Source of the DNA: Haladaptatus caseinilyticus
Lineage (GTDB): Archaea > Halobacteriota > Halobacteria > Halobacteriales > Haladaptataceae
Direction of reading: 5' to 3'
Assembly (NCBI RefSeq): GCF_026248685.1
Contig: NZ_CP111036.1
Location: forward strand, 1,736,001 to 1,800,000
DNA: 64,000 bases
In this document: positions 18,424-58,723 of the stretch, piece by piece
How positions within the stretch are numbered: position 1 is the stretch's first letter
How the letters are laid out: each line of letters starts with the position of its first letter
Program-made: the position numbers and the translations under genes
The notes under the pieces: generated by a model
Database searches by the model: none
What the model saw: only the letters and a program-made list of their open reading frames with translations
What the model was told of the DNA's origin: nothing

Positions 18424-19566
18424 ATGGTTCAGAAACCGTTTGACGACATCATCCGTGAACTCGACAGGGCCGACGCGGATGCGTTCGTTCACGTCGGCGA
18501 CCGATTCGATGACCAGCTTCGATATCTCACCGACTTCTCCGGGCCGGACCGCGACTACGCGTTCGTCCACGTAGCCGGACGGTCGATACTCTGTGCGCCC
18601 CGATTGTTCGGTGAGCAAGCACGCCGTGAGTTCGGCGGTGACGAGGTACGAACGAGTGTGCAACAAACAGGGACGACAGCACCGGCCCGAGCCATCGAAA
18701 CGATTCGGGAGTTCGCCGATGCCCGGCGAATTCTCGTCCCCGGCCACATATCCCACCGGACGGCGACGTCGCTAGAACAGCAGTTCGAACTCATCACGAC
18801 GGACGCCGATTTCGGTCGTTCGCGGAAAACGCCGGACGAGCGTACCGCAATCGCCGGGGTTCAGGCCGCCGCACAGCGGGGAATGGCCCGTGCAGAAACC
18901 GTCCTCGCCGAAACGACGGTTCAGGGCGAAAACCTTCACTGGAAGGACAAACCGCTCACCACGGAACGTCTGCGACGGGAGGTCAACGCCGTCCTTGCAC
19001 GCCACGGCGTTGGTGACGCCGGAAACACCGTCATCGGTGCTGGGCCGAGTTGTGCGGACCTCCACTTTACGGGCGAAGACGGGATCCGTTCCGGGGAGAC
19101 GGTGTTGCTCGACATCTCCCCACGCGGTTCGCGTGGCTACTACGGTGACCTCACTCGAACGTTCGTCGTCGGTGATGTCGGCGAGTGGGAACGCGCCGCC
19201 TATGACGCCGTTCGAGATGCACAGGACGCCGCCCTCTCGACGCTCGATGCAGGGGCAGGAACCCCCGCCGAGACGGTTCACCGGAGCGTCTCGGAAGCGC
19301 TCCAAAGTCATGGGTTCGATGTCGGAGCCGTTTCGGCCGGGATGTATCACGGAACCGGGCACGGTGTCGGACTCTCGCTTCACGAACCGCCATCCCTGTC
19401 GAGCGAGGCGCGACTCGAAGTCGGACACGTCGTCACTGTCGAACCGGGGGTTTACGACCCGGAACGCGGCGGCGTTCGAATCGAAGACCTCGTCGTCGTC
19501 ACGGAATCGGGCTACGAAAACCTCACCGAGTATCCTCGGCGACTTCGACCGACATCGGGTCGATAG
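18424..19566 (+). CDS. M24-family metallopeptidase (Xaa-Pro peptidase type)
   Basis: 380 residues. Creatinase-like N-terminal domain to about 140, then the pita-bread catalytic domain. All five metal ligands are visible: VLLDISPRGSRGYYGDLTRT (Asp, Asp), GTGHGVGLSLHE (His), VTVEPGVY (Glu) and GGVRIEDLVVV (Glu). This is the set of aminopeptidase P/prolidase enzymes that cleave Xaa-Pro bonds. It sits alone between relics of an acyl-CoA dehydrogenase and a GMC oxidoreductase, both probably from a lost catabolic locus, so it may be a survivor of that locus. Confidence 0.87.
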   Translation: MVQKPFDDIIRELDRADADAFVHVGDRFDDQLRYLTDFSGPDRDYAFVHVAGRSILCAPRLFGEQARREFGGDEVRTSVQQTGTTAPARAIETIREFADARRILVPGHISHRTATSLEQQFELITTDADFGRSRKTPDERTAIAGVQAAAQRGMARAETVLAETTVQGENLHWKDKPLTTERLRREVNAVLARHGVGDAGNTVIGAGPSCADLHFTGEDGIRSGETVLLDISPRGSRGYYGDLTRTFVVGDVGEWERAAYDAVRDAQDAALSTLDAGAGTPAETVHRSVSEALQSHGFDVGAVSAGMYHGTGHGVGLSLHEPPSLSSEARLEVGHVVTVEPGVYDPERGGVRIEDLVVVTESGYENLTEYPRRLRPTSGR

Positions 19567-55051: not shown

Positions 55052-56059
55052 ATGGACTGCGATAAGTGCGACCGAGAAGCGGTGATGCATGCGGCCTACT
55101 CCGGGCTTCATCTGTGCGAAGACCACTTCTGTCGGTCGGTCGAAAAGCGTCTTCGACGGCGGATCCGTGACGACAATCTCCTCCCCTCGTCCGCAACCCC
55201 CGATGATCCCCAGACGTGGCTTATCGGGCTCTCGGGCGGCAAAGACAGCGTCGTTCTCACCCAGATTCTCCACGACACCTTCGCGAACGATCCACGGATC
55301 GAACTCGTTGCGCTGACGATTCACGAAGGTATCGAGGGCTACCGTGATGCGAGCTTGGACGCCTGCCTCGAACTCACCGACGACCTCGACATCCGGCACG
55401 AAGTCGTCACCTACGAGGACGAGTTCGACGTTCGGATGGACGATGTCGTGGAAAAGGATCCCGAAAGTATGGCCGCCTGTGCCTACTGTGGCGTGTTCCG
55501 CCGGGATTTGCTCTCGAAGTACGCAGAAGAATACGAGGCAGATAAACTACTCACGGGGCATAATCTGGACGACGAGGCCGAAACCGCGCTGATGAACTTC
55601 CTCGAAGGCGACGTTGCCCAAATCGCCAAACATTTCGATGCGAGTCTCGGAAAGTTCGCGGAAGACGCGCGAGGCGGGTCGGACGAAGACACTTCACCGA
55701 CGAGAAGCGACCAAGATTCGTTTGTGCCCCGTGCAAAACCGCTTCGAGACGTCCCGGAGAAAGAAGTCGCGCTGTACGCACACTTGGAAGACCTACCTGC
55801 ACACATCACCGAATGTCCACACTCCAGCGAGGCATATCGGGCCGAAATTCAGGAGCTGATGCTTTCACTGGAGGAAAATCACCCCGGAACGCGCCACTCC
55901 ATCATGGCCGGGTACGAAGAACTCGCCGCTGTTGCCGCGGACGAATTCGGTGCGGGAGACGGAAAACGGGAACTCAACGAATGTGAACGCTGCGGTGCAT
56001 CCACGACCCGCGACGTCTGTCGGAAATGCGCGCTCGTGGAATCGATTCACGCGGTATAG
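55052..56059 (+). CDS. ncsA: tRNA 2-thiolation enzyme NcsA (TtuA/Ncs6 family)
   Basis: 335 residues. N-terminal zinc finger CDKCDREAVMHAAYSGLHLC, PP-loop WLIGLSGGKDSVVLTQILHD (about residue 60), CAYCGVFRRDLL (catalytic/iron-sulfur Cys), LLTGHNLDDEAETALMNFLE (second catalytic region) and C-terminal zinc finger CERCGASTTRDVCRKC. In Haloferax NcsA thiolates the wobble uridine of lysine, glutamine and glutamate tRNAs with sulfur from SAMP2-thiocarboxylate made by UbaA (encoded at 39705-40523). A Ser/Asp-rich insert around 205-230 is haloarchaeal. Confidence 0.93.
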   Translation: MDCDKCDREAVMHAAYSGLHLCEDHFCRSVEKRLRRRIRDDNLLPSSATPDDPQTWLIGLSGGKDSVVLTQILHDTFANDPRIELVALTIHEGIEGYRDASLDACLELTDDLDIRHEVVTYEDEFDVRMDDVVEKDPESMAACAYCGVFRRDLLSKYAEEYEADKLLTGHNLDDEAETALMNFLEGDVAQIAKHFDASLGKFAEDARGGSDEDTSPTRSDQDSFVPRAKPLRDVPEKEVALYAHLEDLPAHITECPHSSEAYRAEIQELMLSLEENHPGTRHSIMAGYEELAAVAADEFGAGDGKRELNECERCGASTTRDVCRKCALVESIHAV

Positions 56060-56297
56060 CCGAACTGGCGAAGCCTCGCTTTCGATTCCTCGCCGAAGTT
56101 TCGTCACCGGAGGGAGATCTCGTCCTCTCGAAGCCAGTATTTGACCAAGGCGAAACGAGCACCGGTTCGAACTCGTCCATGCGTGTTTCACTATTGTAAT
56201 AGATCAACAGTTATTGTAGCAACGACTGAAACCCTGCCGTTTGTAGCCTCTCCTGCGGTAAAGAAAACTTATTACGACGAACACCAACGCCGAAGAT

Positions 56298-57494
56298 ATG
56301 CCCTCCAGACGACGGTTCCTCGCGCTTGGTGCGGTTACTGCCATAACCGGGTGTACGACGATTGCCGACGACCCACCCGAGCCAGGGTCGAACCAATCGA
56401 CGGACCCCGATAGACATATTTACGGCGCGGACGGCGAATAGTCGAGTTTCGGCTGTAACGCTAGTAATACGCGTGCAGTCGCCGACGGAAAAGCTCCCGT
56501 CGATGGTGTTTCCGAACGATGGCGGGTCGAGGTTCCACAAACCACGTATCAGGAACCGCTCGTCACCGATAGTCGAGTTTTCGTTCCTACTCCGTCCGCA
56601 CTCGTCGTCTACGATGCGACTGACGGGGCCGAACTGTGGCGAAAAACTCGCGAGTGCGGTGTCGATACGTATGCGACACCCCTCGTTCGTGGGAAGACCG
56701 TCTACGTCAGTGGAAGCGACAGATTGCTCGCGCTGGATGTCGAAACTGGCGGGACGCAGTGGAAACATACGTTCGACGAGAGTGGGAGCGTCAGAACCCC
56801 GGCAATGTACGACTCGGGCTGGCTATACGTTCCCGTCGGGGAAACCGTGTACCGAGTCAGTTCGAATACGGGGGAAATCGAATGGTCTCGCGCGCTCTTC
56901 GGCGAAATCCTCGGCTCACCCGCGGTTTTTATGGGATATTTCGTCGTACTCGCCACGAAAGCTGGGAAGCTGTATCTTCTCGCCCCGGATGGCACCGGCG
57001 AGGGTGAATGGAACCTGCCGGCAGAGCCTCGGGCACCGCCGACCGCGGACGCGGACGGCGTCTACGTCACCTGTATGGACGGAAGGACGTACGGGATGAC
57101 GATGGAAAACCCACCAAAACTGAACATCGATTGGAAGCGACGGACTGGCTGGGCGGGCGGAGGACTGGCGGTGAAAAAACACCTGTACGCCGCCGGAACG
57201 AGGGGACTGCACGCTATCAACCCGGATAACGGTGAACGAGTGTGGAAACACGACATCGGTGACTGGCGGTGGACCGCCCCCGCGCTCGGTCGAGATACGC
57301 TGTTCGTGGGTGGAGATAAGTTGTACGCTTTCGACCCGACGCCATCGTTTCGGATTCCGGGAACGGGTCCGAGTCTCCGATTCGAAACATCGTTTCATGG
57401 TCGCGTCGGCCCTGGTCCCGTCCTGAACGACGGAGTACTCTACGTCGTTGCGCAGACTGGCGAACGAAAATATCACCTGCTCGCGCTGGAGTAA
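56298..57494 (+). pseudogene. PQQ beta-propeller Tat lipoprotein gene interrupted by an amber codon
   Basis: ATG 56298 starts a textbook Tat lipoprotein: PSRRRFLALGAVTAITGC (lipobox Cys 19). After DRHIYGADGE the frame meets TAG at 56439-56441, then runs open to 57494: SSFGCNASNTRAVADGKAPV, FVPTPSALVVYDATDGAELW, VYVSGSDRLLALDVETGGTQ and further blades (LYVPVGETVYRVSSNTGEIE, YVTCMDGRTYGMTM, LFVGGDKLYAFDP). The codon fits a former TGG (Trp) changed to TAG. Without readthrough only a 47-residue lipopeptide, or a cytosolic piece from a later start such as 56724, is made. Length with the codon restored, 398 residues, is normal for the family. Confidence 0.8.
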
Positions 57495-57532: not shown

Positions 57533-58723
57533 TTATCGAATAACGTCGAGACCGTTGTTCTTCTCTACTTCGTCTCTGCCACCGTCACTTTGGGTGCCAA
57601 ACGTTTTCTGTTGGACAGCATCGGCGTTGTTACTGGCGTCGTAGGACTGTGCATCCACGTCGCGCATCTTCTGGCGGGAGCGGTCAGCCTGTTTCTGTGT
57701 CGATGGGCCGAGCACCTGTGCGCTTTTGACGCCGGTCATGATTGCCATGACTCGGACTTTGCTCTTGTAGTTCTCCTGGATGCGCGCCCCCCAGATGACG
57801 TTGGCGCTCGCTTCGAGGCGTTCGGTGATGTTGGCCGCAATGCCCTCTGCTTCTTTGAGCGTGAGGTCCGGTCCCCCCGTGATGTGCACGAGTCCGCCGG
57901 AGGCACCGCGATAATCCACGTCGAGAAGCGGGTGGTTCATCGCGTCGCGCACCACTTCCTCGGTCTTGTTTTTGTCCTGTGTCTCACCGACGAGCATCAC
58001 CGCGACGCCGCCCTGGTTCATGATGGAGGTCATGTCGGCGTAGTCGAGGTTGATGAGGCTTGGCTGTGTGATGGTTTCCGAGATACCTTTCACGGTCTCG
58101 GCGATGATCTGGTCCATCACCGAGAATGCCTTGCCGATCGGTAGGTTCGGGACGTAATCGAGGAGTCGGTTGTTGTCGAGGACGATGATGGAGTCCGCCT
58201 CGTTGCGAAGTTTCTCCAATCCTTCTTCGGCTTTTACTGTGCGAGCACGCTCGACGTTGAACGGCGTCGAGACCATCCCGACGACGATTGCGCCCTGTTC
58301 TTTGGCGATTTTCGCGACAACGGGTGCAGCACCGGTTCCGGTGCCGCCACCCATGCCTGCGGTCACGAAGACGAGGTCGGCATCGCCGAGCACTTCCTTG
58401 ACCGTTCCCTGTGCCATCTCGGTGGCGCGCTCGCCCATGGAAGGGTCGCCGCCAGCCCCGAGACCGGATGTGAGGGATTTGCCGACGAGGATTTTCGTGT
58501 CGGCTTCGATCATTTTCAGGTGCTGTTTGTCGGTATTGATTGCAACCGTGTCAGCACCGTCTACGCCGATGTTGTAGAGCCGATTGATAGTGTTGTTCCC
58601 TGCGCCACCGCAACCGACGATGACGATTCGCGGGTCACCGAACTCGTCACCGGTTGCGACGGCATCCATCTCACGCTGTTCGCTTTCGGCGTTCTCCAGT
58701 GCTTCTTGGACGATGTCCTGCAT
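57533..58723 (-). CDS. ftsZ2: Cell division tubulin FtsZ2
   Basis: 396 residues. GTPase core: [60 protein letters not shown] (tubulin signature), [20 protein letters not shown] and T7 loop [10 protein letters not shown]. The start [20 protein letters not shown] and the tail [12 protein letters not shown] match the haloarchaeal FtsZ2 clade, which in Haloferax drives constriction after FtsZ1. Preceded by cdrS with a 3-bp gap; the pair is one transcript. ncsA lies on the far side, as in Haloferax volcanii. Confidence 0.95.

What the first reader, a model, noticed from the sequence alone, without database searches (positions are those of the whole stretch)
56298..57494. Tat lipoprotein PQQ propeller gene interrupted by a single amber codon
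The reading frame is intact on both sides of TAG 56439-56441, including a perfect Tat lipobox and all later blades. The context (GADGE-stop-SSFG) suggests TGG to TAG. No second lesion is visible, so the event is very recent, is a sequencing error, or is read through. Other genes here also end in TAG (for example the M24 gene at 19566), which argues against genome-wide recoding.
Basis: partly seen in the sequence, partly recalled or inferred. Interest (0 to 1): 0.55.

Follow-up and report, generated by a model that had tools for sequence, protein, structure and literature searches.

The report
Freshly broken, dispensable lipoprotein gene
A salt-loving archaeon carries a secreted propeller-protein gene stopped by one premature stop codon; sister species have working, decayed or missing copies at the same spot, so this looks like an ordinary gene being lost rather than a special reading of the genetic code.

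Summary
The frame 56298-57494 holds one TAG at 56439-56441 (codon 48) and no other internal stop. The genome is a haloarchaeon; its closest named relatives at this gene are Haladaptatus. All 10 intact orthologues aligned have TGG at that codon. The frame after the stop is strongly constrained on the window's own branch: omega 0.10, omega = 1 rejected (p ~7e-16), and a neutral tail above about 3-4% of the branch is disfavoured. So the lesion is very young, artefactual, or read through. Locus history favours loss. Of 9 genus genomes, 4 have an intact gene between ncsA and ftsZ and the window has the TAG copy. G002 has an old wreck (TGA at the same Trp codon, lost ATG, 4-base deletion, ~750 bases missing), and 3 have a short spacer with no hit. 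No PylS above cut-off and no CTA-anticodon tRNA was found, though the tRNA search was not exhaustive; TAG ends 13 of 40 long ORFs in the window. Verdict: an incipient pseudogene, one of about four inferred inactivations in the genus. Consensus error is the main rival; read-through is unlikely.

The parts
56268..56274 (+). CTTATTA, TATA-box-like element 24-30 bases before the ATG
   Evidence: AAAACTTATTA in G000, G007, G008 and G001, AAGACTTATTA in G005; the promoter role is inferred
56298..56438 (+). First 47 codons: Tat-type signal (SRRRFL), lipobox-like ITGC, linker
   Evidence: Translation; compared with 10 orthologues; motifs read by eye
56439..56441 (+). Premature TAG at codon 48
   Evidence: TGG in 10 of 10 intact orthologues aligned
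56442..57494 (+). Open remainder of the frame, BamB-like PQQ_2 beta-propeller, ending in TAA
   Evidence: Pfam PF13360, 93.6 bits; omega 0.10 on this branch
56724..57494 (+). First in-frame possible restart after the stop (TTG, 256 aa); lacks the signal and the first part of the propeller
   Evidence: ORF list
56726..56737 (+). GCTCGCGCTGGA, first copy of a short direct repeat; the matching place is where the large deletion of the G002 copy begins
   Evidence: repeat-mediated deletion in G002 is inferred
57479..57490 (+). GCTCGCGCTGGA, second copy, near the end of the gene
55052..56059 (+). Upstream neighbour: ATP_bind_3 / TtuA-type tRNA thiolation gene (called ncsA here, name recalled), ends in TAG
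   Evidence: Pfam; beside ftsZ in 9 of 9 genus genomes; stop codons of relatives
57533..58723 (-). Downstream neighbour: ftsZ-family gene
   Evidence: Pfam Tubulin and FtsZ_C

Best explanation
It is a very young nonsense pseudogene. One G-to-A change turned the conserved Trp codon 48 of a Tat-exported, lipid-anchored, BamB-like PQQ propeller protein into TAG. Translation ends after 47 codons and gives a signal peptide plus a short linker, with no propeller. Nothing else has visibly decayed because the event is recent. The gene is dispensable in this genus and has been inactivated or deleted about four times at this locus. Shown: the stop, the Trp codon in relatives, constraint until recently, the wrecked copy and the gene-less intervals. 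Inferred: that the stop is really in the cell's DNA, that it terminates translation, that the gene-less intervals are losses, and that the gene is dispensable.
For: TGG in 10 of 10 intact orthologues aligned. Downstream frame under purifying selection on this branch (omega 0.104 against 0.161 elsewhere; omega = 1 rejected, p 6.9e-16). A neutral tail of 3% of the branch costs 2dlnL 3.1 and 5% costs 5.5. Of 104 residues invariant in the other ten, 3 differ here, the stop included. In the genus 4 of 9 are intact, 1 is TAG (window), 1 is a multi-lesion wreck with TGA at the same codon (G002), and 3 have a short ncsA-ftsZ interval with no hit. On an unrooted ncsA+ftsZ tree the broken and gene-less genomes fall in four places. 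TAG ends 13 of 40 long ORFs in the window, and ncsA ends in TAG in 3 of the 8 genomes whose stop was read and in TAA or TGA in the other 5. No PylS above cut-off; no CTA-anticodon tRNA found.
Against: There is no second lesion, so a consensus error cannot be excluded from sequence alone. The constraint result would look the same if the codon were read through. A crude count of window-specific codon changes shows more replacements than in G007 and G008 (40:57 against 23:67, Fisher p 0.03; with G001 as outgroup 14:21 against 8:22, p 0.30); the codon model does not show this. That the same Trp codon is a stop in two species is a mild coincidence (about 7% by my arithmetic from the paths and kappa 2.7). 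No second strain of the species was available.
Confidence: 0.8

Rival explanations
1. Sequencing or consensus error: the real codon is sense and the gene is intact.
For: A single lesion, purifying selection on the downstream frame with almost no room for a neutral period, and an intact TATA-like box.
Against: The assembly is 99.99% complete in 7 contigs, with 3.78% contamination estimated. No stop lies inside any of 102 ABC_tran or 36 PQQ_2 domain matches listed for this genome, so stray stops are not common. Loss at the same locus in relatives makes a real lesion plausible.
Confidence: 0.14
2. Read-through: a suppressor or near-cognate tRNA inserts an amino acid at this TAG and full-length lipoprotein is made.
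For: Constraint on the frame after the stop fits, as it would for any recent event.
Against: No PylS above cut-off (best 26.5 bits against 178.15; 1 of 14 control genomes exceeded it). No CTA anticodon among 47 tRNAs with a normal anticodon, and none by pattern. TAG ends 13 of 40 long ORFs. The codon is TGG in the 10 intact orthologues aligned, so it is not a conserved recoding site. A review seen in passages names selenocysteine and pyrrolysine as the demonstrated archaeal stop-codon readthrough cases (PMC8211752).
Confidence: 0.03
3. The stop splits the gene into a short lipopeptide and a separately started propeller.
For: There is an in-frame TTG at 56724.
Against: The restart lies about 280 bases after the stop and would lack any export signal and the first part of the propeller. 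None of the ten intact orthologues has such a split.
Confidence: 0.02

Closest known systems
Nonsense pseudogenes / lineage-specific gene loss in prokaryotes
   Same: Single stop in an otherwise open frame; intact, wrecked and absent copies in sister species at one place
   Different: Caught very early, before any visible second lesion; the same Trp codon is also a stop (a different one) in one relative
BamB-like PQQ_2 beta-propeller lipoproteins (PF13360)
   Same: Pfam match over cut-off; Tat-type signal and lipobox-like N-terminus in the orthologues, by eye
   Different: This copy should not make the propeller
Pyrrolysine-type UAG decoding of methanogens
   Same: In-frame UAG with an open downstream frame
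   Different: No PylS above cut-off, no CTA tRNA found, codon is Trp in relatives, gene is not a methylamine methyltransferase

Membership tests
Recent pseudogene | Relatives have an intact sense codon at the lesion | tested here: met
   10 of 10 intact orthologues aligned have TGG
Recent pseudogene | Frame was under selection until recently | tested here: met
   omega 0.104; neutral tail above about 3-4% of the branch disfavoured; a crude count points mildly the other way
Recent pseudogene | No functional product | not testable with these tools
   Needs proteomics or a reporter
PQQ_2 / BamB-like propeller | Pfam PF13360 over the gathering score | tested here: met
   93.6 against 27.6 bits
Tat lipoprotein | Twin-arginine motif followed by lipobox Cys | tested here: met
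   SRRRFL...ITGC by eye in the translation and in orthologues; no signal-peptide predictor run
Pyrrolysine-decoding organism | PylS present | tested here: not met
   TIGR02367: best 26.5 bits against cut-off 178.15; pylB, pylC and pylD were not searched
Amber-suppressor organism | tRNA with CTA anticodon | tested here: inconclusive
   None found, but the search was not exhaustive for intron-bearing or odd tRNAs; 150 of 186 candidates scored
Genome-wide TAG reassignment | TAG avoided or not used as terminator | tested here: not met
   TAG ends 13 of 40 greedy non-overlapping ORFs of 200 aa or more in the window (ORFs not checked one by one as genes); ncsA ends TAG where five relatives end TAA or TGA

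The most novel reading that the evidence does not exclude
The amber codon is efficiently read as an amino acid in this haloarchaeon by an unrecognised suppressor tRNA or near-cognate decoding, and this lipoprotein codon is a site where a stop is tolerated in the genus.
Probability: 0.03. Interest if true: 0.6.

Novelty: new member of a known kind. Interest (0 to 1): 0.12.

Why it matters
It is a clean snapshot of gene loss at several stages in one genus: intact, one nonsense change, wrecked, and gone, all at one conserved place. It is useful as an example and as a caution for annotation, but it does not point to new biology.

Tried and rejected
Pyrrolysine or suppressor decoding: disfavoured. 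The CTA-pattern scan gave 11 hits (7 forward, 4 reverse; the reversed control pattern gave 1 and 4). Three lie near the 5' ends of Val tRNAs already called (L113-L115). The other eight (L116-L123) gave no tRNA by ARAGORN. The two tRNA places that ARAGORN did not read normally were inspected by eye and show no clear CTA anticodon: L084 looks like a Gln(TTG) tRNA with an intron, and L092 is odd. A tRNA-Trp (CCA, with intron) was found with a pattern recalled from Haloferax; the second hit of that pattern gave no tRNA.

Restart downstream: rejected. Old pseudogene: rejected by the codon model. The codon model was my own script (five sequences, 375 codons, F3x4); its branches are long and near saturation, so branch lengths are rough. 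The first orthologue script found no orthologues, because of a wrong BLAST option, and was repeated with the option removed. The ncsA tail of G005 was cut short by its alignment end, so its stop was not read.

Literature: two searches. One search listed 10 of 107 papers and one search listed 4 of 4. By title and abstract start none is about this gene or about amber decoding in haloarchaea; one of them (PMC3436685) was in both listings and was not read. One review (PMC8211752) was seen in passages only. Two searches do not show that it is not in print.

Full report
Observation. ATG 56298 opens a frame that meets TAG at 56439-56441 and otherwise runs open to TAA 57492-57494. The part after the stop is a PQQ_2 / BamB-like propeller (93.6 bits, cut-off 27.6). 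The first 47 codons carry a Tat-type motif and a lipobox-like ITGC, read by eye. The neighbours are a TtuA-like tRNA thiolation gene, called ncsA here (name recalled; 55052-56059 +), and an ftsZ-family gene (57533-58723 -).

Where it is. The genome has 4.82 Mb in 7 contigs, 99.99% complete with 3.78% contamination estimated. A scan of named genomes gave three loci: Haladaptatus pallidirubidus (74% identity), H. salinisoli (73%) and Natrinema versiforme (50%).

The codon in relatives. A search of 59 genomes, the window's included, gave ten full-length orthologues besides the window's own (E 5.5e-103 or better, 50-76% identity); the next matches fall to E 5.7e-28 and about 31% and were treated as paralogues. 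The family search (28 genomes, the window's included) gave ten at E <= 1e-60, the window's included. All ten orthologues aligned have TGG at this codon. The change is therefore TGG to TAG on the window's branch.

Age. Omega = 1 on that branch is rejected (p 6.9e-16), and the branch is not less constrained than the rest (two-omega against one-omega p 0.08, in the direction of more constraint). A model with a neutral tail is best at zero and loses 2dlnL 3.1 at 3% and 5.5 at 5% of the branch. Of 104 residues invariant in the other ten, three differ here, the stop included; the other species differ at 0 to 23 such positions. A rougher count points the other way: 40 replacement to 57 silent codons specific to the window, against 23:67 pooled for G007 and G008 (p 0.03). 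With G001 as an outgroup the contrast is not significant (14:21 against 8:22, p 0.30). The lesion is young in any case.

History of the locus. ncsA and ftsZ are neighbours in 9 of 9 genus genomes. Between them lie intact genes in G001, G005, G007 and G008 and the TAG copy in the window. G002 holds a wreck: CTG in place of the ATG, TGA at the very same Trp codon, a 4-base deletion, and about 750 bases gone with the gene's last codons apparently kept. In G003, G004 and G006 there is a spacer of about 90-120 bases, stop codons included, with no hit. In the window two GCTCGCGCTGGA copies lie where the G002 deletion has its ends, which suggests loss between short repeats; G007 and G008 lack exact copies. 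On the unrooted ncsA+ftsZ tree G003 and G006 pair together, next to G007; G004 pairs with G005; G002 with G008; G000 stands apart. If the gene was present in the ancestor, that means about four inactivations. The gene tree instead joins G007 and G008 (support 0.70 protein, 0.95 DNA), so some exchange between species is possible. In the six orthologues outside the genus neither neighbour was hit in the roughly 1.3-1.5 kb held on each side, so this address may be particular to the genus.

Same codon twice. In the first 147 codons G007 and G008 offer 47 and 54 single-base paths to a stop, of which 14 and 12 are transitions; this Trp codon has two of them. With kappa 2.7 the chance that G002's stop falls there is about 7% (my arithmetic). 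G002 is closest to G008, which has TGG, so the two stops are most simply independent.

Decoding. The PylS family search gave two weak matches (26.5 and 20.7 bits; cut-off 178.15), while 1 of 14 control genomes exceeded the cut-off and 13 gave some match. RF00005 gave 49 matches, with 150 of 186 candidates scored. ARAGORN called 48 tRNAs in the 47 stretches, 47 with a normal anticodon and none CTA. The remaining two places were read by eye. A pattern scan for CTA tRNAs gave 11 hits: three inside Val tRNAs already called and eight with no tRNA by ARAGORN. TAG ends 13 of 40 long ORFs in the window, TGA 15 and TAA 12. ncsA itself ends in TAG in G000, G002 and G008, and in TAA or TGA after the same last residues (IHAV) in G003, G006, G007, G001 and G004; G005 was not read. 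None of 36 PQQ_2 and 102 ABC_tran domain matches in this genome holds an internal stop (150 of 163 candidates scored). Those counts cover matched stretches only, so a stop like this one, upstream of the domain, would not be counted; two of the 36 lie in this gene.

Conclusion. The best account is a very recent nonsense mutation in a dispensable gene (0.80). A consensus error (0.14) can be settled only with reads or another isolate. Read-through (0.03) has no positive evidence of its own. The finding is real but ordinary.

Noticed in passing
L105 (G002), about 1270-1698: Wrecked copy of the same gene: start codon lost, TGA at the same Trp codon, 4-base deletion, and about 750 bases missing between places that match a short repeat in the window.
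   Followed up: yes
L092 (G000:C1:234145-234229): A tRNA-like gene with a long variable arm in which ARAGORN finds only a two-base anticodon; it may be a degenerate or unusual tRNA.
   Followed up: partly
L068, L069, L070 (G000 contigs C6, C7, C5): tRNA-Thr(TGT) copies on three smaller contigs besides one on C1 (L073), and a tRNA-Leu(TAA) on C5 (L090) besides one on C1 (L085).
   Followed up: no
and trees: The propeller gene tree joins G007 with G008, whereas ncsA+ftsZ joins G007 with G003 and G006, hinting at exchange of this gene between species.
   Followed up: partly
one search match list, e.g. L025 (G031), G051:C53:102417-103253, G020:C1:193119-193667: Several more distant PQQ-propeller matches in other genomes also hold internal stops, of all three kinds, so broken propeller genes are not rare in the order.
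   Followed up: no
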